Origin: a virus
DNA: 27,882 nucleotides
IMG/VR virus record: IMGVR_UViG_3300037963_003942
Span: 1 to 27,882 of that record
Reading direction: 5' to 3' (one strand)
Position numbers and translations under genes: made by a program. The notes under the pieces are model-generated. The model was not told the DNA's origin. It saw only the letters and a program-made list of their open reading frames with translations, and ran no database searches. Below are positions 775 to 23,767 of this stretch, piece after piece; the stretch's first letter is position 1; each line of letters begins with the position of its first letter.

Positions 775-804
775 GATGCACGGCGGGCAACACCTAGTTA
801 TTAC
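775..804 (+). promoter_or_regulatory. Operator 1 with overlapping promoter
   Basis: The 17-bp imperfect palindrome GATGCACGGCGGGCAAC (775-791) matches the window-wide family GTTGC-N7-GCAAC. ATGCAC (776-781) could act as -35, and TATTAC (799-804) as -10 with a 17-bp spacer. The first accessory gene starts 26 bp further on behind a GGAGG site. Promoter activity is inferred. Confidence 0.6.
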
Positions 805-829
805 ACCAGTGTCAACAACGGAGGACAAC

Positions 830-1186
830 ATGGAAGCGACAGCAACAACAACACGAAACATCGGGATGGACGGAGTCGGTATGCCTTATTTTTACGAGGC
901 CGAGATGGTAGAGATTCGTAGCGACGAAGATCCTCTTTACGTCGCGTATCTTCCGACAGTCGTTATCGCGATTGTAGTAGACGGCGCGACTTATACTCTT
1001 AAGGGTTTTGCAGCGGTCGATCATGATCAGCGAGAGGCGCACGCTCAAGCTCACGAGATGGTCGCTAAGGTTCTTCGTCGAGGCGTCGTTAATCTTCAGC
1101 ATTGGGCTCGCGAAGCCACTTACGAGGAGCGAGCTATCGACGGTACAGAGGAAGCGGAAGCGATGGACGAGGCGCGGGGGTGGTAA
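830..1186 (+). CDS. Small accessory protein, paralogue of the gene at 1693
   Basis: The protein has 118 residues and is of unknown function. The ATG at 830 is chosen because it follows the standard GGAGGACAAC site; the in-frame upstream codons run through the terminator and operator. After a Thr/Ala-rich start (EATATTTRN) comes a compact alpha/beta sequence with GVGMPYFYEAEM, YTLKGFAAVDHDQ and GVVNLQHW. It aligns over most of its length with the protein at 1693-2064 (GVGIPYPHEGDM, YTLGGFAVRDRDE, GVIDLQHW), so the two are tandem-duplicated relatives. Codons are visibly more T-rich than in the structural genes (for example GTAGAGATTCGTAGC). There is no signal peptide or membrane segment. Confidence 0.8.
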   Translation: MEATATTTRNIGMDGVGMPYFYEAEMVEIRSDEDPLYVAYLPTVVIAIVVDGATYTLKGFAAVDHDQREAHAQAHEMVAKVLRRGVVNLQHWAREATYEERAIDGTEEAEAMDEARGW

Positions 1187-1206
1187 TCACCCCGCCCTCT
1201 CGGGTC

Positions 1207-1225
1207 TGGGGATGATGCCTCCCCA
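1207..1225 (+). promoter_or_regulatory. Intergenic hairpin
   Basis: TGGGGA (1207-1212) and TCCCCA (1220-1225) form a 6-bp stem with a 7-nt loop, without a T-run. It occupies the place where other gene pairs of this region carry the GGCCCC/GGGGCC tetraloop hairpin, so it may be a sequence-unrelated equivalent. Confidence 0.4.
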
Positions 1226-1270
1226 CTGATGATGGCCACGGCAGGCCGAAACCCACAGACAGAGGACAAC

Positions 1271-1648
1271 ATGACAACGACAGCAACTTTCAAGACAGTG
1301 CCACACGTCAACCGATACGGATACGTCCCGCAGCGCGAGATCGGTCAGGGCGTGTCTAAGGTTCAAGTTACAGAAACGGACGACGGTTATCACTTGTGGG
1401 CATGGGATCGACTCGTGTTTAGCGGTCCCTGTCATCGTTTTGTTCACCCGCACGCTTTTGCTTCTCACGACGCGGCGCTTCAGTTTCGAGATAAGGTCAA
1501 CGATCACGGCGAGATCGATTCTTCTCTTTGGGTCCGTCAGGTTCACGTCGCGTCCTTCGAGATGGCCGAGCGTTCTCGTAAGGCGCGCGACGAGTGGCAC
1601 AACGACGCCGAAGAGATTCGCGGCGAAGCAGAGATAAACGCTTATTGA
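1271..1648 (+). CDS. Small accessory protein of unknown function
   Basis: This 125-residue protein starts at 1271 behind GAGGACAAC; the earlier in-frame ATG at 1229 has no such site. The N-terminus is Thr-rich (MTTTATFKTV). The body contains aromatic and His residues (GYHLWAWDRLVFSGPCHRFVHPHAF) and ends in a charged helix with MAERSRKARDEWHNDAEEI. I do not recognise a family. It is the second gene of the first accessory operon, between the two paralogues at 830 and 1693. Codon use is T-rich compared with the structural genes. Confidence 0.75.
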   Translation: MTTTATFKTVPHVNRYGYVPQREIGQGVSKVQVTETDDGYHLWAWDRLVFSGPCHRFVHPHAFASHDAALQFRDKVNDHGEIDSSLWVRQVHVASFEMAERSRKARDEWHNDAEEIRGEAEINAY

Positions 1649-1654
1649 TTCAAA

Positions 1655-1692
1655 CCGGCCCCGCAAGGGGCCACAGCGCCCGGGAGGACAAC
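1655..1692 (+). repeat. Hairpin-SD cassette, GCAA loop
   Basis: GGCCCC-GCAA-GGGGCC (1657-1672) is a perfect 6-bp stem closed by a GNRA-class tetraloop. CACAGCG follows, then CCCGGGAGGACAAC directly before the ATG at 1693. The same arrangement precedes the genes at 2388, 2648, 3488, 21890, 24101, 24474 and 24743. Confidence 0.85.
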
Positions 1693-2064
1693 ATGACAAC
1701 AGCGGCAGCAACAACAGGGGCAACGGTTCGGAGGATAGCGACACAGGGCGTCGGCATCCCCTACCCTCACGAGGGAGATATGAGCGTGATCCGCGTTCAT
1801 ACGGAGGACGGCGAGGATCAGTTTTACACCCCTTGGATCCGCATCTCGATCGACGTGGACGATCAGCGCTACACCTTGGGTGGGTTCGCGGTCCGTGACC
1901 GGGACGAGTGCAAGTCATACGCGAAGGCGAGCAGACTCATCGCGAAGATCCTCGATCGCGGCGTGATCGATCTTCAGCACTGGGATCGTTACATCTCGTA
2001 TCAGGAGTCATGCGAGAACGGCGACCTCGCAGCGTGGGAGATGGCGCAGGAGGACGCATGGTGA
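1693..2064 (+). CDS. Small accessory protein, paralogue of the gene at 830
   Basis: The protein has 123 residues and starts behind the hairpin-SD cassette. A Thr/Ala-rich leader (MTTAAATTGATVRR) precedes a conserved core shared with 830-1186: GVGIPYPHEGDM, then predicted strands around WIRISIDVDDQRYTLGGFAV, a helix, and GVIDLQHWDRYISYQE. It ends in an acidic, Trp-containing tail (AAWEMAQEDAW). The function is unknown. The shared core and matching length indicate a duplication with divergence. It is the last gene before a terminator. Confidence 0.8.
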   Translation: MTTAAATTGATVRRIATQGVGIPYPHEGDMSVIRVHTEDGEDQFYTPWIRISIDVDDQRYTLGGFAVRDRDECKSYAKASRLIAKILDRGVIDLQHWDRYISYQESCENGDLAAWEMAQEDAW

Positions 2065-2072
2065 TCGCATTG

Positions 2073-2105
2073 CGGATCGGCTGTGGTGGCCGGTCCGTTG
2101 TTTTT
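2073..2105 (+). terminator. Rho-independent terminator
   Basis: CGGATCGGC (2073-2081) pairs with GCCGGTCCG (2089-2097; one G-T pair), followed by a T-rich run from about 2098. It is homologous to the terminators at 715 and 2971, with a compensated stem. Confidence 0.8.
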
Positions 2106-2118
2106 CTTTGGTGTATGT

Positions 2119-2149
2119 GTTGCACGTTAGACAACAAGTAGGATAAGAC
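2119..2149 (+). promoter_or_regulatory. Operator 2 with overlapping promoter
   Basis: GTTGCACGTTAGACAAC (2119-2135) is one mismatch from a perfect GTTGC-N7-GCAAC palindrome. TTGCAC (2120-2125) is a plausible -35, with an AT-rich -10-like TAAGAC at 2144-2149 or ATAAGA one base earlier. The next gene starts at 2175 with ACGGAGGACAACATG. Confidence 0.65.
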
Positions 2150-2174
2150 ACCAACGTCAGCAACGGAGGACAAC

Positions 2175-2342
2175 ATGAAACAAGGCAAAGCAAAACTGTT
2201 CAACGGACGCAAGGACATCGACGGGTGCTTCCACCGAGGCAAGTCAGGCCGGAAGGCTCGGCAGGCGAAAGCGCACAAGCGAGCGATCGAGCGTCAACTC
2301 CGACAGGCTTCTAAGGCGATGTGTCGAGCGGCGTATCGTTAA
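2175..2342 (+). CDS. Small very basic protein (55 aa)
   Basis: The frame begins behind ACGGAGGACAAC and encodes 55 residues, MKQGKAKLFNGRKDIDGCFH onwards. Roughly a third are Lys or Arg, with a helical C-terminal half (RKARQAKAHKRAIERQLRQA). There is no Thr-rich leader. Charge and size suggest nucleic-acid binding, but no family is recognised. It is the first gene of the second accessory operon, and its stop at 2340-2342 is followed within 10 bp by a hairpin-SD cassette. Confidence 0.7.
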   Translation: MKQGKAKLFNGRKDIDGCFHRGKSGRKARQAKAHKRAIERQLRQASKAMCRAAYR

Positions 2343-2349
2343 CCACTCA

Positions 2350-2387
2350 CCGGCCCCGAAAGGGGCCACAGCGTCCGGGAGGACACA
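2350..2387 (+). repeat. Hairpin-SD cassette, GAAA loop
   Basis: GGCCCC-GAAA-GGGGCC (2352-2367), another GNRA loop, then CACAGCGTCCGGGAGGACAC and the ATG at 2388. GTCC-GGGA-GGAC within it can form a second 4-bp mini-hairpin holding the ribosome site. Confidence 0.85.
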
Positions 2388-2609
<222 letters not shown>

Positions 2610-2616
2610 CCACTCA

Positions 2617-2647
2617 CCGGCCCCAAAAGGGGCCACAGGAGGACAGC
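2617..2647 (+). repeat. Hairpin-SD cassette, AAAA loop
   Basis: GGCCCC-AAAA-GGGGCC (2619-2634) followed by a shortened linker CACAGGAGGACAGC and the ATG at 2648. The GTCC part of the longer cassette is absent. Confidence 0.8.
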
Positions 2648-2953
2648 ATGGCAGGAACAAACCACATATGGCCCGAACCCCTACAGTCTGAGATCCCCGA
2701 TGGGAAGTCCGGGCGGTGGGCCTACTACATCCACTACGAGACATGGGTCGCCACCGCTCACTTCGACACAGACGAGGATTGCGTCAGGTGGTGCGAGGCG
2801 GACGTCCAGTGGGCCGGAGGCGGGCGCGTGCTGTTCGCCTCTACATGGCGAAACCACGTCCGAGACGGCGCCGGAGGGGTCAGCGGTGGCCGAGACGCTC
2901 GGCGCGTCTGGGTAGATCGGGGCAAGCTGGATCGGTTCCTCGACCGCGAATGA
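2648..2953 (+). CDS. Small accessory protein of unknown function
   Basis: This 101-residue protein starts behind the cassette ribosome site; longer in-frame extension upstream would run through the previous gene. It is rich in Trp and acidic residues: GRWAYYIHYETWVATAHF, then DEDCVRWCEADVQWAGGGRVLFA, then a positively charged end (RRVWVDRGKLDRFLDRE). The order of predicted strands and helices would fit a small alpha/beta sandwich. I recognise no family. It is the last gene before the terminator at 2971. Confidence 0.75.
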   Translation: MAGTNHIWPEPLQSEIPDGKSGRWAYYIHYETWVATAHFDTDEDCVRWCEADVQWAGGGRVLFASTWRNHVRDGAGGVSGGRDARRVWVDRGKLDRFLDRE

Positions 2954-2970
2954 TCGCAAAAAGATCGCGC

Positions 2971-3010
2971 AGCGGATCGGCTCTGGTGGCTAATCCGCTG
3001 TTTTTCTTTT
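2971..3010 (+). terminator. Rho-independent terminator
   Basis: AGCGGAT-CGG-CTCTGGTGGC-TA-ATCCGCT: AGCGGAT (2971-2977) pairs with ATCCGCT (2993-2999), and a T-rich run follows. It is nearly identical in sequence to the terminator at 715. Confidence 0.85.
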
Positions 3011-3029
3011 GGTTTTCTTTGCCGTATAT

Positions 3030-3060
3030 GTTGCACGCTAGGCAACAAACGGACTATAGT
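3030..3060 (+). promoter_or_regulatory. Operator 3 with clear promoter
   Basis: GTTGCACGCTAGGCAAC (3030-3046) is a perfect GTTGC-N7-GCAAC palindrome. TTGCAC (3031-3036) and TATAGT (3055-3060) are separated by 18 bp, the best -35/-10 pair of the family. The palindrome covers the -35 and most of the spacer, the place where a bound repressor would block RNA polymerase. Confidence 0.75.
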
Positions 3061-3101
3061 CAAAACGTAACCAACAACAACACACCCACACGGGAGACAA
3101 C

Positions 3102-3440
3102 ATGACAACGACAACAACAACAACAACGACGACAGAAGCACCGATGACAGCCCTCGAGGAGACTCGTCGACTAATCGACATGCCTCGGCTCTGGGATCTC
3201 AAGACCAACATCCAAAGATACACGGATGCAGAAATGGCAGACGACGGTCCAATCAACGTTAATCTTTGGCTGAACGCTCCCGGCGAGGGGCCGCGAGTTA
3301 CAATCAAACTCTACAACGACTACGCCCACAACACCGAGCGCGAGGCGCAGGTTATGGCGGCTATGGTCAAGATGGGCGCGGAGACAGGTCACGCTCCATA
3401 TTGGCACGACGCGACTACTATCGCTTTCATGGACATCTAA
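3102..3440 (+). CDS. Small accessory protein with polythreonine start
   Basis: The protein has 112 residues. M1 is followed by ten threonines encoded by ACA/ACG repeats (3105-3134), then EAPMTALEETRRLIDMPRLW. The body has INVNLWLNAPGEGPRVTIKLYNDY and a C-terminal region with AAMVKMGAETGHAPYWHDAT. No family is recognised. The upstream leader (3062-3101) lacks G almost entirely and is A/C-rich, continuing the unstructured character into the gene. An internal Met at about residue 15 could be a second start but lacks a ribosome site. Confidence 0.75.
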   Translation: MTTTTTTTTTTEAPMTALEETRRLIDMPRLWDLKTNIQRYTDAEMADDGPINVNLWLNAPGEGPRVTIKLYNDYAHNTEREAQVMAAMVKMGAETGHAPYWHDATTIAFMDI

Positions 3441-3449
3441 GACAACAAC

Positions 3450-3487
3450 CCGGCCCCGCAAGGGGCCACAGCGTCCGGGAGGACAAC
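3450..3487 (+). repeat. Hairpin-SD cassette, GCAA loop
   Basis: GGCCCC-GCAA-GGGGCC (3452-3467), then CACAGCGTCCGGGAGGACAAC and the ATG at 3488. The preceding TAAGACAACAACC is also shared with the cassettes at 21853 and 24063. Confidence 0.85.
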
Positions 3488-3787
3488 ATGACAACGAAGC
3501 AACAAAGACAACAAGCCGTTTTCCTTCTAACTCAAGCCATCGAGCACATGACGCGGGAGCCGGTCGAGACTGCCAGCCTTATTCATGCGCGGCTAGCTCT
3601 CGGAGATGCGGCTCGACCCCGCACGACATCCGTGCAGCCCACCATCGATGCCATGAACGAGATCATGATCGACCACATCCTGCCCGCGCTGTCGGAGGCA
3701 GCAGGCCACACCGTGATCGATGACCCGTCTCCGTTCATGTTTAAGATGGGAGGCGACACGATCGGCGATCTAGAACGCGGCGTATGA
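3488..3787 (+). CDS. Small helical accessory protein
   Basis: This 99-residue protein starts behind the cassette. It is Gln-rich at the N-terminus (MTTKQQRQQAVFLLTQAIEH), mostly helical by pattern, and ends MFKMGGDTIGDLERGV. There are no Cys, membrane segments or recognisable motifs. It is the last gene of the island before the capsid leader region. The function is unknown. Confidence 0.7.
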   Translation: MTTKQQRQQAVFLLTQAIEHMTREPVETASLIHARLALGDAARPRTTSVQPTIDAMNEIMIDHILPALSEAAGHTVIDDPSPFMFKMGGDTIGDLERGV

Positions 3788-3960
3788 TCGCAACTACCTC
3801 AGCTAAGACAACAACCGGCCCCGCAGGGGGCCACATCATCGGCCGACGTTGCACGTCCTCGCCCTAGTGGGTTAGGGCGTGGTTGTCGTTACGGGTCACG
3901 CCCCGGTCAAGTGCGGATTGCACGACAGATCCACACATTGACCAGTAAGGAGGCCCACAC
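3788..3960 (+). promoter_or_regulatory. Capsid gene leader with two hairpins
   Basis: This gene-free stretch holds GGCCCC-GCAG-GGGGCC (3817-3832), a cassette hairpin lacking its ribosome site. A second perfect 7-bp stem CGCCCTA/TAGGGCG (3860-3866 and 3873-3879) has loop GTGGGT. A half operator GTTGCACG sits at 3848-3855 and TTGCACGACAG at 3919-3929. The leader ends in TAAGGAGG, the strongest ribosome site in the window. I see no convincing -35/-10 pair, so whether the capsid gene has its own promoter is open. Confidence 0.5.
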
Positions 3961-4908
3961 ATGGCCACTATCTCATCGCCGTTTATCAATAACGACATCG
4001 AAGCTCAGGTAGGTTTTGCCTACACATTCGCTGAGCAAGCTATTCTAGACCGGCTAGCGGACCGCTTGAACGTGCTACCCATCGTTCAGTTGGTCGGAGA
4101 CGCAGCAGGCACAGGCTCAGACACCATCCGCGTCAGTAACATTGGGGGCTTGGGCTACAACGCAAGCATGAGCGCGCTAGGATCGGAGACTGCCACGATC
4201 ACCGCCAGCACTATGGATCTGGGCTTCAGTACCTGTAGCATCGCAGATTATGGCCTCGCCTACGAAGAGAGCTACAAGGCGGCGATCCTCGCTCGCGAGC
4301 CTCAAGTCCTGATCGACTCGATCGTTGAGACTATCCCCGATGCATGGCTGAAGCAGATGCGCACCCTCGTTGCAACCGAGATCGCGGCGTTCTCGTCCAG
4401 CGTTGGATCGGCTTCGCTCACCCTGAGCGTTGACGACTACCTCGACCTGATCGCAGTGTACCGCGAGGCCCTCGGCTCTCGTCTTCCGGCTGTCATGCTG
4501 CACCCTGTGCAGTTGTCTCAGTTGGTCGAGTCCTTCCGAAGCGAACCAGCGTTCCAAGCCAACATGACAGACTTCGCAAGCGTGCAAGCGTTCAACGAGT
4601 CCCAGACGGTCACCAACGCTTTCGGCCTCGGCGCGGACATCCACATCTCGGACAGTGTGACGACAAGCGGCGGCGGCTACAACGGCGGCGCGTTTACCCC
4701 GGGCGGCATCGGCTACGCAGTAGCGAGCACCGGCAATCTTCGGACCGCCAACCCGGCGACGAGCATCCTCGTCCCCGAGTTTGGACTGGTCATCGAGGAC
4801 CTGCAGTCAAATACGGGTACTCGTCGCGTAGACGCTCGGGCATTTTTCGGCGTTGCAGCGGGCTCATCGGACGTCTACACGTTCCGTAAGGTCGTATCGA
4901 CTACATAG
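3961..4908 (+). CDS. Major capsid protein
   Basis: This 315-residue protein is the probable HK97-fold coat subunit. It starts NNDIEAQVGFAYTFAEQAIL, followed by strand-rich segments (TIRVSNIGGLGYNASMSALG) and a long helical stretch (about 105-145, including ILAREPQVLIDSIVETIPDA) like the spine helix. It ends with beta-rich repeats (LVPEFGLVIEDLQSNTGTRR, then YTFRKV). Length, absence of enzymatic motifs, the strong TAAGGAGG site and the position downstream of a scaffold-like gene and upstream of connector genes support the call. No N-terminal cleaved delta domain is apparent, consistent with a separate scaffold. Exact family membership was not tested. Confidence 0.8.
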   Translation: MATISSPFINNDIEAQVGFAYTFAEQAILDRLADRLNVLPIVQLVGDAAGTGSDTIRVSNIGGLGYNASMSALGSETATITASTMDLGFSTCSIADYGLAYEESYKAAILAREPQVLIDSIVETIPDAWLKQMRTLVATEIAAFSSSVGSASLTLSVDDYLDLIAVYREALGSRLPAVMLHPVQLSQLVESFRSEPAFQANMTDFASVQAFNESQTVTNAFGLGADIHISDSVTTSGGGYNGGAFTPGGIGYAVASTGNLRTANPATSILVPEFGLVIEDLQSNTGTRRVDARAFFGVAAGSSDVYTFRKVVSTT

Positions 4909-4932
4909 ACAACCTGAGAGGAGGAGACACAC

Positions 4933-5691
4933 ATGGCAGTACCCCGAAAGACCAAATCCAAGAAGGCCGAGTCGGCTGTCCTCACGGGCGCCGTCTCGAC
5001 TGGTAAACCCAAGGCCGAGACAAACCTCGGTCATCTGCTCAAGACCCCGGTCGCGGCAGCGTCCACCCGGACGCCAGTCTGTGACCCGTCCGAGCGGTTC
5101 TTTCTCCGGCATTGGCCGAGGGAGTGGGAATGCGAAGAGGTCGACGGCTCTCCTGTGTGGCTCCCCATCTTAGGCCCCCACCTACTCAAACCGGGCACGA
5201 CAAACATCAGAACACTAGCGAAACATGAGGCCCACCGGCCCCATCTCGCCTACGAGTTTTCGGTGATGTCGGCTCGGCGCGACGGGTGGATCTATATCGA
5301 TCCCGATACGCCCGTCCCCGATGGGTGTCTCCCCGATGGCGTGCCGGAAGGTGGCTACCTTCGATCCCTTGACTGTGTGTCTCGCTCGGGCGTTCCCGGC
5401 GAGAAGTGGGTCGAGGCTTGGGAAGTCCCCGTCCCTACGCTACCGGGTGAGCCCCAGCGGTGGCGATTCGATCGCGCTAGCTACAACCGATGGCGAAAGC
5501 ACCTCGTCGACTCCGAGCAAGTCCCAGCACCGGACCCGGAGTGGCTAACGATGAAGCGCGACACCATCGCGAAACACCTACGAAGAACCAAAGCGAAGCC
5601 ACTCCCCACCGACCTCCGGGCGGAGATGGTCGCCAAGCATCAAGAGCGCCTCGACATGATCGACAGCGCGCCAAGCCCGGAGGCAACATGA
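4933..5691 (+). CDS. Unknown protein of the head module
   Basis: The protein has 252 residues. A basic disordered N-terminus (VPRKTKSKKAES) leads to a Trp/Pro-rich centre with FFLRHWPREWECEEVDGSPV, a short acidic segment DPDTPVPDGCLPDGVPEGGY, and FDRASYNRWRKHLV. A charged helical C-terminus follows (IAKHLRRTKAKPLPTDLRAE). The GAGGAGG site lies 8 bp before the ATG. Its place right behind the coat protein suggests a virion or head-completion role, but no family is recognised. Confidence 0.75.
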   Translation: MAVPRKTKSKKAESAVLTGAVSTGKPKAETNLGHLLKTPVAAASTRTPVCDPSERFFLRHWPREWECEEVDGSPVWLPILGPHLLKPGTTNIRTLAKHEAHRPHLAYEFSVMSARRDGWIYIDPDTPVPDGCLPDGVPEGGYLRSLDCVSRSGVPGEKWVEAWEVPVPTLPGEPQRWRFDRASYNRWRKHLVDSEQVPAPDPEWLTMKRDTIAKHLRRTKAKPLPTDLRAEMVAKHQERLDMIDSAPSPEAT

Positions 5692-5843
5692 GCGACGAGT
5701 CCAGCAAGCGGAAAGCCATCGCGGAGACGGCGAGAGACTTCTCTCGGTCGACTGGTGGGCGCGTCACCTTTGAGCAAGCCAAGCAACGGATCACAGAGGC
5801 GCGGAGACGGGGCGACCGCATCCGAGCCAACAACAACAAATAG
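5688..5843 (+). CDS. Small charged protein (51 aa) in the head module
   Basis: The start overlaps the previous stop (ATGA at 5688-5691), so it is coupled. The 51 residues are helical and basic: MSDESSKRKAIAETARDFSR, then RVTFEQAKQRITEARRRGDR, ending in NNNK. The function is unknown. Tight coupling on both sides (an AGGAGG site for the next gene lies 8 bp past its stop) supports it as real. Confidence 0.7.
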   Translation: MSDESSKRKAIAETARDFSRSTGGRVTFEQAKQRITEARRRGDRIRANNNK

Positions 5844-17370: not shown

Positions 17371-18737
17371 CCCCGGCCGATCTCGTCGATCGGTATGAAC
17401 AACAGATCAGGCACGCGATCGGAGTGGATGGGCTAGGACACCGAACACTAGCCAAGAGGCTCACGGAGTTGTCGGGGACCTACGTCACCATGTGGAAGGC
17501 GCGCAAGGTTCGGGAGATCATCGGCCTATCCCCAACGCCGCGACCGAAGCCGGAGGAGCGGCAGCAGATCAGTCGGACAGCGCCAGACGCCATGACGCAG
17601 ACGCTCGAAGCGAAGGGAGGCCGGATCCGTACACTAGCGGACCTGCTCGACGCGGCAGGGGTCGACCTGACGCAGTGGAAGGTCGAGACGTGGAAGGCGA
17701 ACGCATACGAACAAGCGCAGAAGGGCGAGGACGGGCCCCGGCTCATCACCCTGCACCAAGTCAAGGCGACCCTCCGTCGACACTTCAGCGCGACGCTACG
17801 ACCCGCGAGAGCGCCCGTCACGCTACCACCTCCCGAAGACGTCGAGCGCCCACCCGCCCCCCTCTGTGTCTTCATACCGGACACACAGGTCGGTCACCGA
17901 TTCCGGAAGCGGTGGTCCTATCTTGACCCAATGCACGACCGTGTCGCGATGGACTGCGTCGTCCGTACCCTCGAGCGGATGGACCCGAAGCCGGAGGTGG
18001 TGGCGCTCTTAGGGGACATGGCAGATCTCGCAAGTCTTAGCCGGTATCCGTCCGACATCTCTCTCCGGGGCACGACCCAAGCCACGATCGACGAGTTGCA
18101 CTGGTGGCTTGCTCAGATCCGGCTCGCGGTCGGAGGGGCGACCCGTATCGTCTACATGGCCGGGAACCACGAGAAGCGCGTCGAGGTCAGCATGATCCCC
18201 AGTGACCTCGAGGGACTCGTCGCAGCGAAGGAAGAGGATCCACTTCTGACCCTTCGCCGGTTGCTTCGGTTGGATGAGCTACAGATCGAGTACGTCGGGC
18301 CATATGGCGCCGACTGGTGGCTCTGGGATGGCAAGGTGCAAGTCACACACGGGAACACCGTTAGAAGCGGGGGAGGGGCGACCGCTGCCTCCGTCGTCAA
18401 GGGTCTAACGACTGCCTCTCAGGTCTTCGGCCACATCCACCGGCTCGAGCTAGCCTGTCGAACGGTCCACGGCCCAGAGGGCGAGCGGGTGCTTGTTGCG
18501 ATGTCGCCCGGGTGCCTTTGCAGGACGTCGGGCGGAGACGGTCCGCCGGGGTTCAGCGACGCGGGCCGGGACTGGCAGCAGGGGATTGGGATCGCCTACT
18601 TGCACGAGGATCGCGTCCACATGTCGACGATCCCCATCCACGCGGGATCTCTCGTCTGGGAGGGGGAGATCGTGACCGGGCGGGATAGAGTGGAGGAGTT
18701 GATCGAGGCTACCGGGTGGGAACAGTTCAGAGGGTGA
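17367..18737 (+). CDS. Calcineurin-like metallophosphoesterase with N-terminal HTH-like region
   Basis: The protein has 456 residues, with a GTG start overlapping the previous stop as GTGA. Metal-ligand motifs of the family appear in order: D172-x-Q174 with H177 (DTQVGH, Gln in place of the usual His), G216-D217, G-N267-H268-E269, H328 (THGN) and G-H356-x-H358. The first ~50 residues (GLGHRTLAKRLTELSGTYVT) resemble a helix-turn-helix, and ~50-160 is a charged helical linker. The family cleaves phosphodiester or phosphomonoester bonds. Substrate here is unknown; a DNA or RNA end is plausible given the HTH-like part. Its place in the late block is odd. Confidence 0.75.
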   Translation: MTPADLVDRYEQQIRHAIGVDGLGHRTLAKRLTELSGTYVTMWKARKVREIIGLSPTPRPKPEERQQISRTAPDAMTQTLEAKGGRIRTLADLLDAAGVDLTQWKVETWKANAYEQAQKGEDGPRLITLHQVKATLRRHFSATLRPARAPVTLPPPEDVERPPAPLCVFIPDTQVGHRFRKRWSYLDPMHDRVAMDCVVRTLERMDPKPEVVALLGDMADLASLSRYPSDISLRGTTQATIDELHWWLAQIRLAVGGATRIVYMAGNHEKRVEVSMIPSDLEGLVAAKEEDPLLTLRRLLRLDELQIEYVGPYGADWWLWDGKVQVTHGNTVRSGGGATAASVVKGLTTASQVFGHIHRLELACRTVHGPEGERVLVAMSPGCLCRTSGGDGPPGFSDAGRDWQQGIGIAYLHEDRVHMSTIPIHAGSLVWEGEIVTGRDRVEELIEATGWEQFRG

Positions 18738-18741
18738 TCCA

Positions 18742-18864
18742 ATGCGTCGAAGAGTGCGTCCGATCGTCGGGCTTGTTGTTCTGGTGGTCGAACAGATCGC
18801 AAAGGCCATCAAGCGAAAGCGAGACAAGAAGAGGAGAGATCAAAATGAAGGGCAAGAAGTTTAA
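18742..18864 (+). CDS. Hydrophobic-basic micro-protein (40 aa)
   Basis: The ORF starts 5 bp after the previous stop, with GAGGGTG 5' of it. It encodes MRRRVRPIVGLVVLVVEQIA then a strongly basic tail (KAIKRKRDKKRRDQNEGQEV). One membrane-type helix (residues 7-24) is flanked by Arg and Lys on both sides. It overlaps the next gene's ATG (18845) by 20 bp. It might be a tiny lysis or membrane protein. Evidence is only spacing and composition. Confidence 0.4.
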   Translation: MRRRVRPIVGLVVLVVEQIAKAIKRKRDKKRRDQNEGQEV

Positions 18865-19015
18865 CGTCTTTGTACTGATCGCGCGGTTGCTCCGCGTGGC
18901 GCAACCCATCGCGCAGGCACTGAAAGACAAGCACATCGACGACAGCGAGCGCGACGAGATCGTCGGGGTTCTGCTCCAAGAGATCACCGGCTATCTCGAT
19001 GAGTTGATGCGATGA
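18845..19015 (+). CDS. Small amphipathic late protein (56 aa)
   Basis: The start at 18845 follows AGGAGAG. It encodes MKGKKFNVFVLIARLLRVAQ, PIAQALKDKHIDDSERDEIV and onwards to DELMR. It has a basic N-terminus, an amphipathic or hydrophobic helix (7-27), and an acidic helix resembling EF-hand-adjacent phage proteins. Its stop overlaps the next start (ATGA at 19012-19015). The function is unknown; a lysis-cluster location is possible. Confidence 0.6.
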   Translation: MKGKKFNVFVLIARLLRVAQPIAQALKDKHIDDSERDEIVGVLLQEITGYLDELMR

Positions 19016-19266
19016 ACCTGTCGGACCCTCGAGTGTCTTGGGCTCTCCTCGCGATGGGCGAAGCGGCGCCAGCGTTCGACGCTGTGATTCACCGAGCCGA
19101 GCCCCTGACCTCGAGCGAGTTTGTCGACGTCGCGGACGCTGTGATCAGTGTTCTCGCGGCGTACCTATACGACGACGACTCGCCCCCGGTCGGCGTGTTC
19201 TGCCTCGATGCTAGCTTTACGGAGCAAGTAACGAAGGCAGCGCTCGCCGCCGGGGAGTCGGGCTAG
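19012..19266 (+). CDS. Small protein of unknown function, last late gene
   Basis: The 84-residue protein is coupled by ATGA overlap. It is helical and acidic: NLSDPRVSWALLAMGEAAPA, VADAVISVLAAYLYDDDSPP, TEQVTKAALAAGESG. No family is recognised. It ends at a TAG that shares CTAG with the stop of the opposite-strand gene at 19263, so transcription from both sides collides here. Confidence 0.65.
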   Translation: MNLSDPRVSWALLAMGEAAPAFDAVIHRAEPLTSSEFVDVADAVISVLAAYLYDDDSPPVGVFCLDASFTEQVTKAALAAGESG

Positions 19267-19706
19267 TGCACGTCTTCGGAGTGTAGATCGCGGAACGCTC
19301 GCAACTCGGCCCGGACGTCGGGCAGTCCTCGGCACAGCGCCCAAGCAGCAGCGATCCCGGGGGACGCTCCCCATCCCATGAGGCGTGTCCGGGGCGGGGA
19401 CGCTACCGGCTTCAACCACACCTCATAGCCTCCAGCCCTCGACCGTCCGATCTGGACAGGCGCCGGAGCCAACTCCACGACCCGGGCCATAATGGCGCCA
19501 GCGGTCGCGGGGTCATCCAGATCGGGAAGACCGGCGGACGATTGCTCGGACGTGCCGACTTTGCTCGAGTCGTATCTCCACGGGTTGAATATCCCCGCAG
19601 GATGGCGACAGAGCATCCCGTCGGCCCACTTCCAAAGCGGAGAGCCCGCCACCTCTCGGAGAAACGGGAGCAGGTCCTCGAAAGTATACTCCCTACTCCT
19701 CCCCAT
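19263..19706 (-). CDS. Unknown protein co-transcribed with the repressor
   Basis: The protein has 147 residues. It starts at 19706 inside the end of the repressor gene (14-bp overlap), with GGAGGTGG in the repressor's last codons as ribosome site. It is Trp/Pro-rich (GSPLWKWADGMLCRHPAGIF, NPWRYDSSKVG) and later has GGYEVWLKPVASPPRTRLMG and a helical C-terminus. No family is recognised. Operon partner of an XRE repressor, so an immunity-associated or toxin-like role is possible, but nothing in the sequence proves it. Confidence 0.7.
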   Translation of the reverse strand: MGRSREYTFEDLLPFLREVAGSPLWKWADGMLCRHPAGIFNPWRYDSSKVGTSEQSSAGLPDLDDPATAGAIMARVVELAPAPVQIGRSRAGGYEVWLKPVASPPRTRLMGWGASPGIAAAWALCRGLPDVRAELRAFRDLHSEDVH

Positions 19707-19962
19707 CGGCCACCTCCGGCTCCGGCTCTACGATGCCCGCATAGACACGACAAGCGGCCGACATCTTCCGGCCCTTGAGCCCTAACGCCTTACAGATCCC
19801 GGCCCAGTTGTCGCGGCTCGGCACCTTCTGACCTGACAGCCACCGCGAGACAGTGCTCCGGTTGACTGGCAAGCCGAGATCACGCAATGCGCGACAGAGG
19901 TCGGACTGGCTCATGTCCTTGTCTTCTAGGTGTTTTCTGATCACATCTTCGATCGTCTTCAT
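19693..19962 (-). CDS. XRE-family HTH repressor candidate
   Basis: The protein has 89 residues. The start at 19962 is chosen because TAAGGAGGGCAAC lies directly upstream; codons further 5' would run through the operators. Residues 17-62 form a typical Cro/CI helix-turn-helix (MSQSDLCRALRDLGLPVNRS then TVSRWLSGQKVP), followed by a short basic part and an acidic tail (EPEPEVADGEE). It lacks a LexA/CI-type cleavage domain. Divergent from the accessory genes with operators in between, it is the best candidate to bind the GTTGC-N7-GCAAC sites, including one in front of itself. Binding is inferred. Confidence 0.8.
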   Translation of the reverse strand: MKTIEDVIRKHLEDKDMSQSDLCRALRDLGLPVNRSTVSRWLSGQKVPSRDNWAGICKALGLKGRKMSAACRVYAGIVEPEPEVADGEE

Positions 19963-20009: not shown

Positions 20010-20026
20010 GTTGCAAGTCGAGCAAC
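20010..20026. promoter_or_regulatory. Operator 4, repressor promoter region
   Basis: GTTGCAAGTCGAGCAAC is a perfect GTTGC-N7-GCAAC palindrome about 50 bp upstream of the repressor start, placed to control the leftward promoter. A convincing leftward -10 was not identified. Confidence 0.7.
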
Positions 20027-20060: not shown

Positions 20061-20090
20061 GTTGCCTATGAGGGAACAACGAAGTAAGGT
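20061..20090 (+). promoter_or_regulatory. Operator 5 with rightward promoter
   Basis: GTTGCCTATGAGGGAAC (20061-20077) is an imperfect copy of the 17-bp operator, nested in a larger inverted repeat GTTGTT...AACAAC. TTGCCT (20062-20067) and TAAGGT (20085-20090) are 17 bp apart. The gene at 20119 follows with ACGGAGGACAACATG. Confidence 0.6.
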
Positions 20091-20118: not shown

Positions 20119-21105
20119 ATGACAACGACAGCAGCAACATACAGCCGACTAGCAGCACCCAAGGGAACCAAGGTTACCTGCCCCTGTTGCCTCAAGAAGC
20201 ACAACGCCAAGACGGACGGCACACTGACCCGCCACGGATGGAAGGAGACAGGGCGGACGGTCGGAAGCTACGGCAACGGCTACCAGTGGGGCGAGTGCGC
20301 AGGGTGGGACCGACGACCACTCGAGCAGACGGACGCGGACGCTCTCGCGATTATCGACATCATCGAGGCGGACATCCCGAAGATGGAGGCGGACCTCGAG
20401 CACCACGAGACGACCCAGCAGACATACACGCACCGGAGCGAGGTTACCTACTACGACGGCAACAGGGACGGCGAAATGGACGCGGGCTTCGTCGCGATGT
20501 CCGAGGCCGGGGCGGATGTCTCGGAGGGCACAGTCCGCAGGGTTAGCCACGTCGTCCGACATATCCCGGCGCTGATCGCCTTGTGGTCGGTTGAGCCGGG
20601 GGCAGATGTGCGAAGGGTCAGCGATGGATCTACGTTCGGCAAGGTCCGGATCCCATCATATACCGACGTCCGGTCGGCTTTTCTTGCGGACCTCAAAGGC
20701 CAGATCGAAAGCGCCAAGGCTCAGGTCGCATCGCTCCGAGAGGCTATCGCGACACACCGAGCGAACCCGGCGCCGTGGACCGGCGAGGAGCCCCCACAAG
20801 ACCCAACCCCGGCCCCTAGCGGGCCGAAGGGAGGCAAGGCCCCCAAGGTCTACAAGAAGAGCGCAGCGCCTCAGCGAGTCGAGCGCGTGTCGGACCTACT
20901 CCAGCGAGCGCGAGCCCTTATGCTCGCAGTCGTCGAGAACACCGAGGCCGACGACAGCCCGACAACACAGCGAGAAGCGGACAGCCTTCGGGCGCTGTGC
21001 AGTCAGGTCGAGAAGGCGGCGCGTCGACACTACGACGCAGCAGCAGCCGCAGGGCTCGAGGTCACCGGCTACCACTACGCGAAGGACCGGGAGCACTGGG
21101 AATAG
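20119..21105 (+). CDS. Zinc-binding accessory protein, first rightward gene
   Basis: The protein has 328 residues and starts behind the standard ACGGAGGACAAC; upstream in-frame codons lie in the promoter. A Thr/Ala leader (MTTTAATYSR) precedes a cysteine module, C21-x-C23-C24 (CPCCLKKHNAKTDGTLTRHG) with H39 and C60 (YQWGEC), resembling zinc modules of plasmid and phage proteins. Next come helical or coiled-coil segments (about 75-115 and 205-230), a Pro/Lys linker (235-275) and a helical C-terminus. No known enzyme motif. Being the first gene under the divergent operator, it is likely an early protein. Confidence 0.75.
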   Translation: MTTTAATYSRLAAPKGTKVTCPCCLKKHNAKTDGTLTRHGWKETGRTVGSYGNGYQWGECAGWDRRPLEQTDADALAIIDIIEADIPKMEADLEHHETTQQTYTHRSEVTYYDGNRDGEMDAGFVAMSEAGADVSEGTVRRVSHVVRHIPALIALWSVEPGADVRRVSDGSTFGKVRIPSYTDVRSAFLADLKGQIESAKAQVASLREAIATHRANPAPWTGEEPPQDPTPAPSGPKGGKAPKVYKKSAAPQRVERVSDLLQRARALMLAVVENTEADDSPTTQREADSLRALCSQVEKAARRHYDAAAAAGLEVTGYHYAKDREHWE

Positions 21106-21181: not shown

Positions 21182-21210
21182 GTTGCCTATCGGGCAGCAT
21201 GGATTAGATT
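21182..21210 (+). promoter_or_regulatory. Operator 6 with overlapping promoter
   Basis: GTTGCCTATCGGGCAGC (21182-21198) is one mismatch away from palindrome symmetry of the family. TTGCCT (21183-21188) and TAGATT (21205-21210) are 16 bp apart. The gene at 21239 follows behind ACGGAGGACAAC. Confidence 0.6.
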
Positions 21211-21238: not shown

Positions 21239-21844
21239 ATGGCACGCAGCAAGAACCAAAGCATCACACTCGACGGCAAGACATACACCCGGACCGTTAC
21301 CGGGATTACGAGCGAGTACGTTTGGGCAAGCATGGACAAGCGCGAGACGGGGTGGGTCAAGATCGACGGATACAGGTACTTGGTCGAGCGTACCTACCAA
21401 TACGACGATCAAAGCTACACGCTGTGGACGCTTGTCGAGTACCGCGACGGAACGCGGCACGCTATCCCGTGCCGTAAGCGCGCCCCATCAGTCAAGATCA
21501 GCGCCGACGCTCGGGCGTGGCTTGCGGATGTCTTCGTCGGTCATGCTCTCCAAGTCATTGAATCGTGCGAGTACGCTACCGCAACGATGGTATATCACGA
21601 GCTTTTTAACGGCTTTGACGCCTACCACGCCGAGCGCCTCGCGGGCCGAGAGATTCCGGCAGATCTTAAGGCTCTCGACCTTTGGTGCAACTACGTCCCC
21701 GGCATCGAGAAGGCTGCAATGGTTAGCCGGATTAAGCGCGTACTCGATACCCAAGCCAAGTCCGACGCGGGCACGATCGGCCGATGCTATGCGATACAGA
21801 ACGGAAAAGAGGTTCTCGCATACTGCGCGCCCGCCACCTACTAG
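21239..21844 (+). CDS. Accessory protein of unknown function
   Basis: The protein has 201 residues and starts behind ACGGAGGACAAC. N-terminal beta-rich part (ITLDGKTYTRTVTGITSEYV, GWVKIDGYRYLVERTYQYDD), then a helical part with DARAWLADVFVGHALQVIES, KALDLWCNYVPGIEKAAMVS and a final strand. No family is recognised. Codons are again T-rich in places (GCTTTTTAACGGCTTTGACG) compared with the structural block. Confidence 0.75.
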   Translation: MARSKNQSITLDGKTYTRTVTGITSEYVWASMDKRETGWVKIDGYRYLVERTYQYDDQSYTLWTLVEYRDGTRHAIPCRKRAPSVKISADARAWLADVFVGHALQVIESCEYATATMVYHELFNGFDAYHAERLAGREIPADLKALDLWCNYVPGIEKAAMVSRIKRVLDTQAKSDAGTIGRCYAIQNGKEVLAYCAPATY

Positions 21845-21852
21845 ACAACAAC

Positions 21853-21889
21853 CCGGCCCCGCAAGGGGCCACCAACAAGAGAGGACAAC
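21853..21889 (+). repeat. Hairpin-SD cassette, GCAA loop
   Basis: GGCCCC-GCAA-GGGGCC (21855-21870) with upstream TAGACAACAACC, then CACCAACAAGAGAGGACAAC and the ATG at 21890. The linker differs from the GTCCGGGAGGAC type. Confidence 0.85.
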
Positions 21890-22009
21890 ATGACACACAT
21901 CACCCTACACTGGACCGAGGTCTGGGCTCTCATCGCCCTGTTCGGCATACAGACTGCCTTCCTCGGCCTCATGTGGCGCGATCGCGAGATGTGGAGGGCC
22001 GGACGATGA
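21890..22009 (+). CDS. Single-pass membrane micro-protein (39 aa)
   Basis: Starts behind GAGAGGACAAC. The 39 residues are MTHITLHWTEVWALIALFGI then QTAFLGLMWRDREMWRAGR. One hydrophobic helix (about 11-29) with a positively charged C-terminus suggests an inner-membrane protein with the C-terminus in the cytoplasm. It is coupled to the next gene (ATGA at 22006-22009). The function is unknown. It is a possible superinfection-exclusion type membrane peptide, but this is a guess by size and topology only. Confidence 0.6.
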   Translation: MTHITLHWTEVWALIALFGIQTAFLGLMWRDREMWRAGR

Positions 22010-22569
22010 GCGGCACCATCAAGATACATGGCAAGAGTTACGCTACCGTAGGCAAGCGGGTCCACGACTTCCGGAAGAAGTACCCCATCTCGAAGGGATG
22101 GGCGATCAAGACGGAGATCGTGATGATGGACGAGCGCGCCGTCGTCGTCAAGGCTTGGGTCGTCGACAACAGCGGTCACACGGTCGCTGTGGGCCATGCT
22201 GAGGAGGTCCGGGCAGCGTCTAAGATCAACAAGACGAGCGCCCTCGAGAACGCAGAGACGAGCGCTATCGGGCGAGCGCTTGCGGCGTCAGGCTACACAA
22301 TGGACGGGATCTACGCGACGGCGGACGAAGTACTCAAGGCACAGCGAGCCGAGAGGGCTCTCGCTGTTAAGGTCGGACCAGACGGCACACACGACACATG
22401 GCAGCAACTCGCCATCGATCGCGGCTACTCGGTGCCCAAGATCGTCGCCTACTTTAAGAAGAAGAAGAGCCCGATCCCCGACCCCAACAGCGACCGCTTT
22501 GATGGCTTCGTCGCGTGGCTAAACCAAGCGACCCCAGAGATGATCGATCTCTTTGGGAGGGACGAATGA
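22006..22569 (+). CDS. ssDNA annealing protein-like (Erf/Rad52-type) candidate
   Basis: The protein has 187 residues, starting at the ATGA overlap. The core has KGWAIKTEIVMMDERAVVVK, WVVDNSGHTVAVGHAEEV and the alanine-glycine helix KTSALENAETSAIGRALAAS followed by GYTMDGIYATADEV. This ENAETSAIGRALA-type motif is widespread in phage recombination proteins related to Erf/Rad52-like annealers. A C-terminal segment (KKKKSPIPDPNSDRFDGFVA) is extra. Position next to replication genes supports DNA recombination. The assignment rests on remembered motif, without a search. Confidence 0.6.
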   Translation: MSGTIKIHGKSYATVGKRVHDFRKKYPISKGWAIKTEIVMMDERAVVVKAWVVDNSGHTVAVGHAEEVRAASKINKTSALENAETSAIGRALAASGYTMDGIYATADEVLKAQRAERALAVKVGPDGTHDTWQQLAIDRGYSVPKIVAYFKKKKSPIPDPNSDRFDGFVAWLNQATPEMIDLFGRDE

Positions 22570-22910
22570 AGCGGAGCCAGATCGAGACAGTCAGGCAGCG
22601 CGGCGCTGTGATGGACGTCATCGCGTGCGGTCGATGGCATACGACGCGAGAGATCGCGGTCGCACTGCCTTGGGCAGTCCAAAACGTATGGCAAAGGCTC
22701 CGAGAGTTGGCGGCGATGGGCGTCGTCGACGTTCGATCGTTTGGTGGCACACCGTCACGACCAACGGAGTCACAGTGGCGAGCGTCTAGGAAGCCCCCAC
22801 AAGACGCCGAGCCGTCCGAGGTAGGCGCTACCATAGGCGAGCCGACAGGACACGCGAGAGACGCAACAGAGAGCCAAGGAGACACGCCGACGGGGGTGTC
22901 CGATGGCTAG
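22566..22910 (+). CDS. Winged-helix DNA-binding protein
   Basis: The protein has 114 residues; its start at 22566 overlaps the previous stop (ATGA). Residues 1-60 read as a winged helix (MKRSQIETVRQRGAVMDVIA, WHTTREIAVALPWAVQNVWQ, RLRELAAMGVVDVRSFGG), followed by a disordered Pro/Thr/Gly tail. Likely a DNA-binding regulator or replication accessory. It is an alternative regulator of the early operons, besides the XRE protein. It overlaps the initiator gene by 8 bp. Confidence 0.65.
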   Translation: MKRSQIETVRQRGAVMDVIACGRWHTTREIAVALPWAVQNVWQRLRELAAMGVVDVRSFGGTPSRPTESQWRASRKPPQDAEPSEVGATIGEPTGHARDATESQGDTPTGVSDG

Positions 22911-23718
22911 GTTCACGAGTTGGTGGAAGGCGAGCGTGTACGAGTGGGACGCCATGCTCGCAGCGATGAGGAAGACGACGGCCGTCGCGTTCCCGGACGA
23001 GTTGGCGATGATGGACCTCGACTTCCTGAGCCAGCAAGGTCGGACGATGAGCGTGTCGGACTTGGCCGAGAGGTGGCAGTGGAGCCGATCGAAGGCTCAC
23101 CGCTTCGTGAGGTCTTCGGCAGTTGGTATAGGAGTGGTACCAGTCAGGGATAGGAGTGGGACGGATAAAGCAGCGCCCAAGGCTCAACCGGCTGTCGCGG
23201 TGGGATCGGATCAGGATAGGACTGGGATAGATGTGGGACTTACGCGCGAGTACAAGGGATCTACTAAGAATAGAGAAGAGAAGAAAACGCGGGCGCGTGA
23301 CGCCCGTTCTACTGAGCCCCCAAAGACCAAGCCAAAGAAGACCACGCCACGCAAGCCACGCAAGACCCCAGCGGAGCAACAGGCCAAGCGGGAAGCGGTG
23401 GCGTCCTTCTGCGACATTTACCGGGACGTGATGGGAGAGCGGTACGACGTGACGGGCAAAGACGCCGGGGTCGTCGAGCTACTCGCCAGCAAGCGAGAGG
23501 AGGACCGGCCCCGATGGGAGCGCGTGGTTCGTCGGTACATTGAGCGGAAGCGCGATGAAGGGGTCGACAAGTGGCTCGGATCGTGCCCACCGGGTGATCC
23601 ATCGATCCGACAACTTGGGGACTGGTTCAACCAGTTTACCCGCGATCAATCCGCCCCCATGGCGCGTGTACGAGGACACCACGGTCCAGCGGAGAGGAAG
23701 CCGTCGAAGCTTTTTTGA
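22903..23718 (+). CDS. Replication initiator-like protein
   Basis: The protein has 271 residues and overlaps the previous gene. The N-terminal part (about 40-72; MSVSDLAERWQWSRSKAHRF) is a winged-helix-like DNA-binding domain. A disordered Lys/Pro linker (about 118-165; KTKPKKTTPRKPRKTPAEQQ) is followed by a helical C-terminal domain with DIYRDVMGERYDVTGKDAGV and WERVVRRYIERKRDEGVDKW. DnaD/lambda O-like replisome organisers share N-terminal wHTH, linker and loader-contact C-terminus. Iteron-like repeats lie inside this gene, and a DnaC-like loader is encoded downstream. Confidence 0.65.
   Translation: MARFTSWWKASVYEWDAMLAAMRKTTAVAFPDELAMMDLDFLSQQGRTMSVSDLAERWQWSRSKAHRFVRSSAVGIGVVPVRDRSGTDKAAPKAQPAVAVGSDQDRTGIDVGLTREYKGSTKNREEKKTRARDARSTEPPKTKPKKTTPRKPRKTPAEQQAKREAVASFCDIYRDVMGERYDVTGKDAGVVELLASKREEDRPRWERVVRRYIERKRDEGVDKWLGSCPPGDPSIRQLGDWFNQFTRDQSAPMARVRGHHGPAERKPSKLF
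23125..23239 (+). repeat. Iteron array, candidate replication origin
   Basis: Four copies of a 16-bp element near GGGATAGGAGTGGGAC: 23125-23140 (GGTATAGGAGTGGTAC), 23147-23162 (GGGATAGGAGTGGGAC), 23213-23228 (AGGATAGGACTGGGAT), 23224-23239 (GGGATAGATGTGGGAC). Start-to-start distances are 22, 66 and 11 bp, all multiples of 11, so the sites share one face of the helix. They are inside the initiator gene between its DNA-binding domain and its linker, as iterons lie within lambda gene O. Confidence 0.65.
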
Positions 23719-23736
23719 TCGATCTTGCGTGTTTGT

Positions 23737-23767
23737 GTTGCACGATAGACAACGGATAGGATACCAC
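23737..23767 (+). promoter_or_regulatory. Operator 7 with overlapping promoter
   Basis: GTTGCACGATAGACAAC (23737-23753) is one mismatch from a perfect copy of the operator. TTGCAC at 23738-23743 is followed by GGATAGGATACCAC, with a -10-like element (TAGGAT or TACCAC, 13 or 18 bp spacing) of uncertain identity. The gene at 23796 follows behind ACGGAGGACAAC. Confidence 0.6.

What the first reader, a model, noticed from the sequence alone, without database searches (positions are those of the whole stretch)
775..23767. Seven dispersed copies of a 17-bp palindromic operator, most overlapping a promoter, plus one XRE repressor gene
GTTGC-N7-GCAAC or near copies occur at 775, 2119, 3030, 20010, 20061, 21182 and 23737. 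Six lie 5-18 bp upstream of an AT-rich -10-like element, with TTGCAC/TTGCCT inside the palindrome acting as -35, and each precedes an accessory operon. The seventh (20010) is 48 bp upstream of the repressor's own start. The only Cro/CI-type protein in the window (19693-19962) is encoded here. Inference: a single repressor controls a dispersed accessory regulon and itself, comparable in principle to mycobacteriophage L5 stoperators but located in promoters. The match is read by eye; the binding is unproven.
Basis: partly seen in the sequence, partly recalled or inferred. Interest (0 to 1): 0.85.

Follow-up and report, generated by a model that had tools for sequence, protein, structure and literature searches.

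The report
Phage repressor with seven scattered operators
A virus of bacteria known only from sequence carries seven copies of one 17-letter palindrome, each placed in a gene switch, and a single small switch-off protein very probably binds them, including the copy at its own gene; the layout is new in its details but of a kind already known from a few other phages.

Summary
Confirmed and, in its core, supported. GTTGC-N7-GCAAC with at most one mismatch occurs seven times in the 27.9-kb virus record, only at the stated places, all noncoding in my gene calls. 200 shuffles gave 0-3, mean 0.70; in leave-one-out matrix scans no other window outscores a left-out site. Six sites form the -35 part of a strict promoter layout: 16-18 bp, TA-containing -10, exactly 6 nt, GT(C/A)A; the seventh sits at the repressor's own promoter. 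New evidence links the sites to the 89-aa Cro/CI-type protein: its recognition helix NRSTVSRW recurs in a prophage CI (L005) with two perfect sites nearby, and in Phaeodactylibacter regulators with one-mismatch sites. Of 33 regulator homologues the site is present in 3 (helix xR(S/A)TVSRW, all from two genomes) and absent in 30; absent too in 13 phage repressors with other helices. Counter-examples exist (L048/L090). Mycobacteriophage BPs is a better comparison than L5 stoperators. New member of a known kind; binding, repression and lysogeny are unproven.

The parts
775..791 (+). operator 1 GATGCACGGCGGGCAAC over -35 (ATGCAC); -10 TATTAC 799-804; predicted +1 at 811
2119..2135 (+). operator 2 GTTGCACGTTAGACAAC over -35; -10 TAAGAC 2144-2149; predicted +1 at 2156
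3030..3046 (+). operator 3 GTTGCACGCTAGGCAAC over -35; -10 TATAGT 3055-3060; predicted +1 at 3067
20010..20026 (-). operator 4 at the repressor's own promoter; on the - strand -35 TTGCAA 20016-20011, 17 bp, -10 TACAAG 19993-19988, predicted +1 at 19981
   Evidence: hexamers and positions counted by hand from the sequence printed
20061..20077 (+). operator 5 GTTGCCTATGAGGGAAC over -35 (inner sequence closer to the others when inverted); -10 TAAGGT 20085-20090; predicted +1 at 20097; divergent from the repressor
21182..21198 (+). operator 6 GTTGCCTATCGGGCAGC over -35 (inverted inner sequence); -10 TAGATT 21205-21210; predicted +1 at 21217
23737..23753 (+). operator 7 GTTGCACGATAGACAAC over -35; -10 TACCAC 23762-23767; predicted +1 at 23774
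19693..19962 (-). repressor gene (P0001), 89 aa, HTH_3/HTH_31; recognition helix NRSTVSRW; too short for a C-terminal peptidase domain
19263..19706 (-). 147-aa protein, overlapping the 3' end of the repressor gene, probably same operon (inference)
   Evidence: no family in PHROGs, Pfam or PADLOC
711..749 (+). terminator-like hairpin before operator 1
2072..2098 (+). terminator-like hairpin before operator 2
2984..3000 (+). terminator-like hairpin before operator 3, part of the same repeat (D3) as the other two
830..2064 (+). cassette A: genes 830-1186, 1271-1648, 1693-2064 (first and third match phrog_1507, unknown function)
2175..2953 (+). cassette B: small genes 2175-2342, 2388-2609, 2648-2953
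   Evidence: ORFs; gene calls used
3102..3787 (+). cassette C: genes 3102-3440, 3488-3787
20119..21105 (+). gene of the divergent operon (328 aa, weak match to phrog_28271, unknown function)
21239..23718 (+). genes downstream of operator 6 (operon assumed from common direction), including 22006-22569 (match to phrog_11717; tblastn relatives in Lactobacillus delbrueckii phages) and 22903-23718 (IclR-type HTH match)
23796..27848 (+). genes downstream of operator 7 (operon assumed from common direction), running into DnaC-like loader (25549-26628), SSB (26610-27002) and RuvC-like resolvase (27004-27528)

Best explanation
The seven palindromes are operators of the 89-aa Cro/CI-type repressor encoded at 19693-19962. 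A dimer would bind the two GTTGC half-sites, 12 bp apart, with the recognition helix NRSTVSRW. At six promoters the operator covers the -35 hexamer and the start of the spacer (centre about -28), so that bound repressor would exclude RNA polymerase. When repressor is low, these promoters would start the early/replication genes (20097, 21217, 23774) and three small accessory cassettes (811, 2156, 3067), each of which follows a terminator-like hairpin and lies upstream of the structural block. At the repressor's own promoter the operator lies about 9 bp further upstream (centre about -37); autorepression is my first guess, activation is possible. Shown: sites, placement, promoter-like anatomy, HTH family, and a helix-operator association in other genomes. 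Inferred: binding, occlusion, operon extents, timing, and a lysogenic role.
For: Seven and only seven sites, all noncoding in my gene calls, separable from all other windows in leave-one-out scans. In two Phaeodactylibacter genomes the motif with at most one mismatch occurs 272 times in 7.9 Mb and 132 times in 4.7 Mb, fewer than its backwards control (354, 212), about 34 and 28 per Mb, against 7 in 0.028 Mb here. Strict promoter layout: TTGC-N18-20-TA-N10-GT(A/C)A hits five of the seven sites and nothing else on either strand, expected 0.00; 775 differs by the first T of TTGC only; with my own weighting the -10 score at the right spacing exceeds random intergenic positions, p about 1.5e-4. The inner 7 bp of 21182 match those of 23737 at 6 of 7 on the opposite strand (1 of 7 on the same), of 20061 at 4 (2), as a pseudo-palindromic protein site allows and a directional promoter element would not. 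Link to the protein: the L005 CI repressor (37% identity over 57 residues, identical NRSTVSRW) has two perfect GTTGC-N7-GCAAC, one in its divergent control region and one about 290 bp further, before the next leftward gene; L060 and L072 regulators with NRSTVSRW have one-mismatch sites. Of 33 homologue loci, the site within 300 bp upstream is in 3 of 3 with xR(S/A)TVSRW and 0 of 30 others, among these a paralogue in the same genome (L190) (Fisher p about 1.8e-4). Among phage repressors with other helices it is in 0 of 10 relatives of L005 (ten chosen from 69 records) and 0 of 3 relatives of P0001 (all that one search listed).
Against: The three positive homologues come from only two genomes of one genus, two of them near-identical orthologues, and the grouping xR(S/A)TVSRW was drawn after seeing which rows had sites; the p value is optimistic. 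L191 (NRTTVSKW) and L177 (NRTTVTRW) have R at position 2 but no site. L048 and L090, holding the same Ruminococcus-type HTH protein with NRSTVSRW, have no site with at most one mismatch in the held stretch; five other proteins with NRSTVSRW in other HTH settings (L047, L058, L064, L143, L166) have none in the stretch examined. The L005 record shows only its two sites plus one stray one-mismatch site, so the dispersed regulon itself is not seen in a relative. The promoters are weak by the E. coli consensus: a 9-of-12 scan reported none of them. Three of the seven sites (775, 2119, 3030) share a duplicated 92-nt module, so they are not independent. No binding data; host unknown.
Confidence: 0.78

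Rival explanations
1. The repeats are simply a family of similar phage promoters (conserved -35 plus surroundings, spread by duplication of a terminator-promoter module), with no repressor binding them.
For: Three sites lie in one duplicated 92-nt module; upstream T-rich sequence is conserved as well; every site doubles as a -35 element.
Against: The downstream arm GCAAC, not needed by a -35 element, is intact in 3 of 7 and has one change in 4 of 7; the inner sequence is inverted relative to transcription at 21182 and partly at 20061; the repressor's own promoter uses the other arm; the same palindrome stands at other regulators with the same helix.
Confidence: 0.12
2. The sites are bound by a different regulator, of the host or of the phage (for example the 147-aa protein at 19263-19706 or the IclR-HTH protein at 22903-23718).
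For: P0001 binding is unproven; another HTH match is encoded; the host is unknown.
Against: Two sites sit in the divergent control region of P0001, and the helix-operator association points to P0001.
Confidence: 0.08
3. At its own promoter the repressor acts as an activator, as lambda CI does at PRM, rather than as an autorepressor (a variant of the best explanation, not exclusive of it).
For: The operator centre is at about -37 for the repressor promoter against about -28 at the other six (counted from the sequences; lambda's -42 geometry is recalled).
Against: The operator's near arm coincides with the -35 hexamer TTGCAA, which favours occlusion; activation normally needs a site just upstream of -35 (recalled).
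Confidence: 0.25

Closest known systems
Mycobacteriophage BPs repressor gp33(103) and its operators (PMC4557955, abstract and passages)
   Same: Small (103-aa) repressor; binding regions spanning the genome at promoters; four promoters regulated, including ones away from the switch; palindromic element.
   Different: The BPs operator is a pair of 12-bp half sites with variable spacer, with a tetramer in solution; operator sequence different; no regulation of its repressor promoter was observed. Here a single 17-bp palindrome is fused to the -35 in seven places.
Streptomyces phage phiC31 repressor with conserved inverted repeats (CIRs)
   Same: Many repressor sites dispersed over the genome (18-30 stated jointly for phiC31 and L5 in PMC4557955, passage); that they are inverted repeats is recalled.
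   Different: phiC31 has three repressor isoforms and more sites (same passage); no sequence relation tested.
Mycobacteriophage L5 / Cluster A stoperators (PMC9283540, abstract and passages)
   Same: One HTH immunity repressor, many sites across the genome, some of them in promoters.
   Different: Those sites are asymmetric 13-mers, oriented with transcription, bound by a monomer, and many lie outside promoters; here the sites are palindromic, not tied to one orientation, and in promoter positions.
Cluster O (Corndog) 17-bp repeat TGTTCGG-N3-CCGAACA (PMC4351075, abstract and passages)
   Same: 17-bp dyad repeated through a phage genome.
   Different: 34 copies in Corndog, about a third inside genes, unknown function, no repressor assigned in the passages seen.
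CI repressor of the prophage-like record L005 (IMGVR_UViG_2879462666_000002)
   Same: Identical recognition helix NRSTVSRW and the same operator arms GTTGC-N7-GCAAC at its control region.
   Different: 228-aa repressor whose C-terminal part looks like S24/LexA repressors and an integrase-like gene beside it (both recognised by eye); its two perfect sites are close to the switch, not dispersed.

Membership tests
Cro/CI-type (HTH_3) phage repressor | HTH_3 / HTH_31 domain above curated cut-off | tested here: met
   PF13560 31.9 bits (cut-off 27), PF01381 31.5 (cut-off 23); PHROG repressor families to 3.4e-9
Cro/CI-type (HTH_3) phage repressor | Five-helix lambda-repressor-like fold | tested here: inconclusive
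   single-sequence AlphaFold model, pLDDT 74.8, five helices; best PDB match TP901-1 CI NTD with E 0.026, no match with E <= 0.001
Cro/CI-type (HTH_3) phage repressor | Divergent gene pair with operators in the shared control region | tested here: met
   operators 20010 and 20061 between 19962(-) and 20119(+)
Phage with dispersed promoter operators (BPs / phiC31 kind) | Same repressor site at several promoters outside the switch | tested here: met
   sequence level only: five further promoter-placed sites, 775, 2119, 3030, 21182, 23737
Phage with dispersed promoter operators (BPs / phiC31 kind) | Repressor binds these sites and represses the promoters in a lysogen | not testable with these tools
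   needs gel shift and reporter fusions
Cluster A stoperators | Asymmetric sites oriented with transcription | tested here: not met
   palindromic sites; inner sequence inverted at 21182 and partly at 20061
Cluster A stoperators | Sites outside promoters that stop elongation | tested here: not met
   all seven are in promoter-like positions by sequence
Temperate phage | Integrase or partition genes | tested here: inconclusive
   none among window proteins scanned, but not every ORF was scanned and the record is probably a fragment (no terminase or portal match either)

The most novel reading that the evidence does not exclude
The repressor site has been fused with a promoter and a terminator into a portable cassette (terminator, operator-promoter, start-associated sequence), so that newly acquired accessory genes placed before the structural block are automatically under the early repressor; and the NRSTVSRW helix to GTTGC-N7-GCAAC pairing is a reusable specificity code found in phage and bacterial regulators of unrelated genomes.
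Probability: 0.33. Interest if true: 0.55.

Novelty: new member of a known kind. Interest (0 to 1): 0.45.

Why it matters
Few phages are known in which one small repressor controls many separate promoters instead of a central switch. This one offers a compact, well-separated set of operators in a virus without close relatives in the collections searched, an exact list of predicted start sites, and a candidate recognition-helix/operator pair that can be used to predict operators in other genomes and tested by a simple gel shift.

Tried and rejected
No nucleotide relative of window 1-25000 in the phage collection and no tblastn relative for the tape-measure, 3961-4908 or DnaC-like proteins; the 1046-aa protein found none in viral contigs. 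The exact motif GTTGCACGNTAGNCAAC in viral contigs gave 25 stretches with one match each, of G+C 0.37-0.61; none of the held stretches matched a window protein at E 1e-3 (42 proteins, of which 2649-2953 was given in a wrong frame), so the regulon could not be footprinted in a close relative. Eight contigs related through 22006-22569 were not examined for the motif. P0001 had no plasmid match, no PDB sequence match and three weak phage matches, whose surroundings lack the site. Stoperators, Corndog repeats and Cluster K start-associated sequences were considered and set aside as explanations for the palindrome. Ten proteins, most of them accessory, gave no PADLOC match, and Rfam none. The structure model for 3961-4908 was useless (pLDDT 32.6), so its role as capsid protein is not shown. 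No phiC31 repressor paper turned up in three searches; phiC31 CIR statements are recalled apart from the passage in PMC4557955. I picked CI-like proteins by eye among the NRSTVSRW frames; most frames were chance.
Full report
What the window is. The 27,882-base window is an entire IMG/VR virus record, 60.8% G+C; its first 25,000 bases have no megablast relative in the phage collection. Left to right: a 208-aa protein; three small accessory cassettes (697-3787); a block (3961-19266) with tape-measure-like (9352-11433; phrog_9483, 8e-18), tail-like (14573-16318; PF13550) and metallophosphoesterase-like (17367-18737) proteins, called structural block here; a leftward pair, 19263-19706 and the repressor 19693-19962; then rightward genes ending in a DnaC-like loader, SSB and RuvC-like resolvase. 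No terminase, portal or integrase was matched among the proteins scanned, so the record is probably a fragment.

The observation. GTTGC-N7-GCAAC with at most one mismatch occurs seven times and only at the reported places. 200 dinucleotide shuffles gave 0 to 3, mean 0.70. With two mismatches allowed the signal is weak (21 against 11.5 expected), and several CG-rich arm pairs with the same spacer are as frequent or more so; the case rests on position and on the inner sequence. All seven lie in the 1,842 noncoding bases of 27,882 (my gene calls). In leave-one-out matrix scans no other window outscored any left-out site; with the full matrix the scores fall from 18.3 (weakest site) to 8.9 (best other). 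The inner seven bases follow ACG-N-TAG in 2119, 3030 and 23737; 21182 matches 23737 at 6 of 7 when inverted and at 1 of 7 otherwise, 20061 at 4 and 2, 20010 at 3 and 2, 775 at 2 and 4. The right arm is intact in 3 of 7 and has one change in 4; the left arm is intact in 6.

Promoter anatomy. Aligning the six rightward sites shows -35 TTGCAC/TTGCCT inside the palindrome (ATGCAC at 775), a 16-18 bp spacer, a -10 beginning with TA, exactly six bases, and then GTCA or GTAA, where a transcription start would be expected. The gapped pattern for this layout hits five of the seven sites and nothing else on either strand, with 0.00 expected; 775 differs by the first T of TTGC only. The predicted leaders are 19-22 nt (35 nt for 3067); five of the six end in GGAGGACAACATG, that of 3067 in a variant (sequence). 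The -10 match at the right distance beats random intergenic positions (p about 1.5e-4, my own weights; the repressor site was there scored with the wrong arm and so counts against). The general sigma-70 scan did not report these promoters: they are weak by that standard. The repressor promoter on the minus strand reads TTGCAA (other arm), 17 bp, TACAAG, six bases, G (counted by hand).

Linking the sites to the protein. The 89-aa product is a Cro/CI-type HTH protein. Its one confirmed viral-contig relative, L005, is a 228-aa CI-like repressor with an integrase-like gene next to it (recognised by eye); identity is 37% over 57 residues but the recognition helix NRSTVSRW is identical. L005 has two perfect GTTGC-N7-GCAAC: one in the divergent control region, the other about 290 bp further, over the end of the next leftward gene and before the following one. 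The first (GTTGCTCGAAATGCAAC) differs from the window's 20010 site, read on the minus strand, at two positions. Scans for NRSTVSRW in viral and bacterial contigs (8, 113, 12 and 2 stretches, mostly chance frames) gave CI-like settings in Phaeodactylibacter L060 and L072, both with a one-mismatch site before the gene, and in one protein held twice (L048, and L090 from Ruminococcus albus), without a site. Five NRSTVSRW proteins of other HTH kinds have none. Homologues of the L060 regulator were then sought in 198 genomes of its order (matches in 40 of 198, 52 places, 30 loci held) and in the L060 and L072 genomes. Of the 33 loci held, the site (at most one mismatch, 300 bp upstream) is present in three, with helices NRSTVSRW, NRSTVSRW and SRATVSRW, and absent in the other 30, among them a paralogue of the L060 genome with TEVTVSRW. 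The three positives come from two genomes of one genus, the first two are near-identical, and the grouping was made after seeing the result; Fisher p about 1.8e-4 is therefore optimistic. Ten phage relatives of L005 with other helices, chosen from 69 records, had no such site in about 400 bp upstream, nor had the three weak phage relatives of P0001.

How it probably works. A P0001 dimer on a 17-bp palindrome, as for lambda-type repressors (recalled), would cover -35 and the start of the spacer at six promoters and shut them. Downstream lie replication genes and three accessory cassettes. Each cassette begins with a terminator-like hairpin and an operator-promoter from a shared 92-nt module. 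The block starting at 3961 has no such operator; only a lone GTTGCACG with promoter-like spacing lies before it (3848; sequence, pattern), which would fit a promoter that escapes the repressor. Binding, sign of autoregulation, operon extents, timing and lysogeny are inference.

Known or new. A small repressor with several regulated promoters over the genome is known in mycobacteriophage BPs (PMC4557955, abstract and passages); dispersed sites are known in phiC31 and L5 (same paper, passage). L5 stoperators differ in symmetry, orientation and place (PMC9283540); Corndog's 17-bp repeats have no known function in the passages seen (PMC4351075). The present case is a new member of this kind, with its own operator. 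I did not search the literature for this operator sequence itself.

Score. Interest 0.45.

Noticed in passing
1657, 2352, 2619, 3452, 3817, 21855, 24065, 24438 (+): Eight exact GGCCCC-N4-GGGGCC hairpins (loops GCAA, GAAA, AAAA, GCAA, GCAG, GCAA, CTCG, CTTG) between genes, mostly just before a ribosome-binding site; all in or at the end of the operator-controlled stretches, none within 3961-19266 (12 with up to 2 mismatches against 2.5 expected).
   Followed up: partly
821, 1262, 1684, 2166, 3479, 20110, 21230, 21881, 23787, 24092, 24465 (+): Eleven exact copies of a start-associated GAGGACAACATG, all in the operator-controlled stretches and none within 3961-19266; resembles in principle the SAS of Cluster K mycobacteriophages (PMC3203893, abstract and passages).
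   Followed up: partly
2388-2609, 3102-3440, 24101-24430: Genes begin with runs of ACA/ACG codons giving threonine-rich N-termini (for example MTTTTTTTTTTEAP); possibly a translation-enhancing unstructured start.
   Followed up: no
3848-3886: GTTGCACG half-operator with promoter-like spacing (TAGGGC, then 6 nt, GTCG) but no right arm, upstream of the block at 3961: possible repressor-free promoter; overlaps a hairpin CGCCCTA-GTGGGT-TAGGGCG.
   Followed up: no
830-1186 and 1693-2064: Two genes of cassette A both match phrog_1507 (E 0.0044 and 3.3e-6), so probably paralogues.
   Followed up: no
22006-22569: Protein with tblastn relatives in Lactobacillus delbrueckii, Bacillus and Pelagibacter phages at 33-53% identity (17 records); the longer frame 21784-22569 matches phrog_11717; function unknown.
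   Followed up: partly
18716-19015: Weak match to a CII-like transcriptional activator family (phrog_101, E 0.037), just left of the repressor pair.
   Followed up: no
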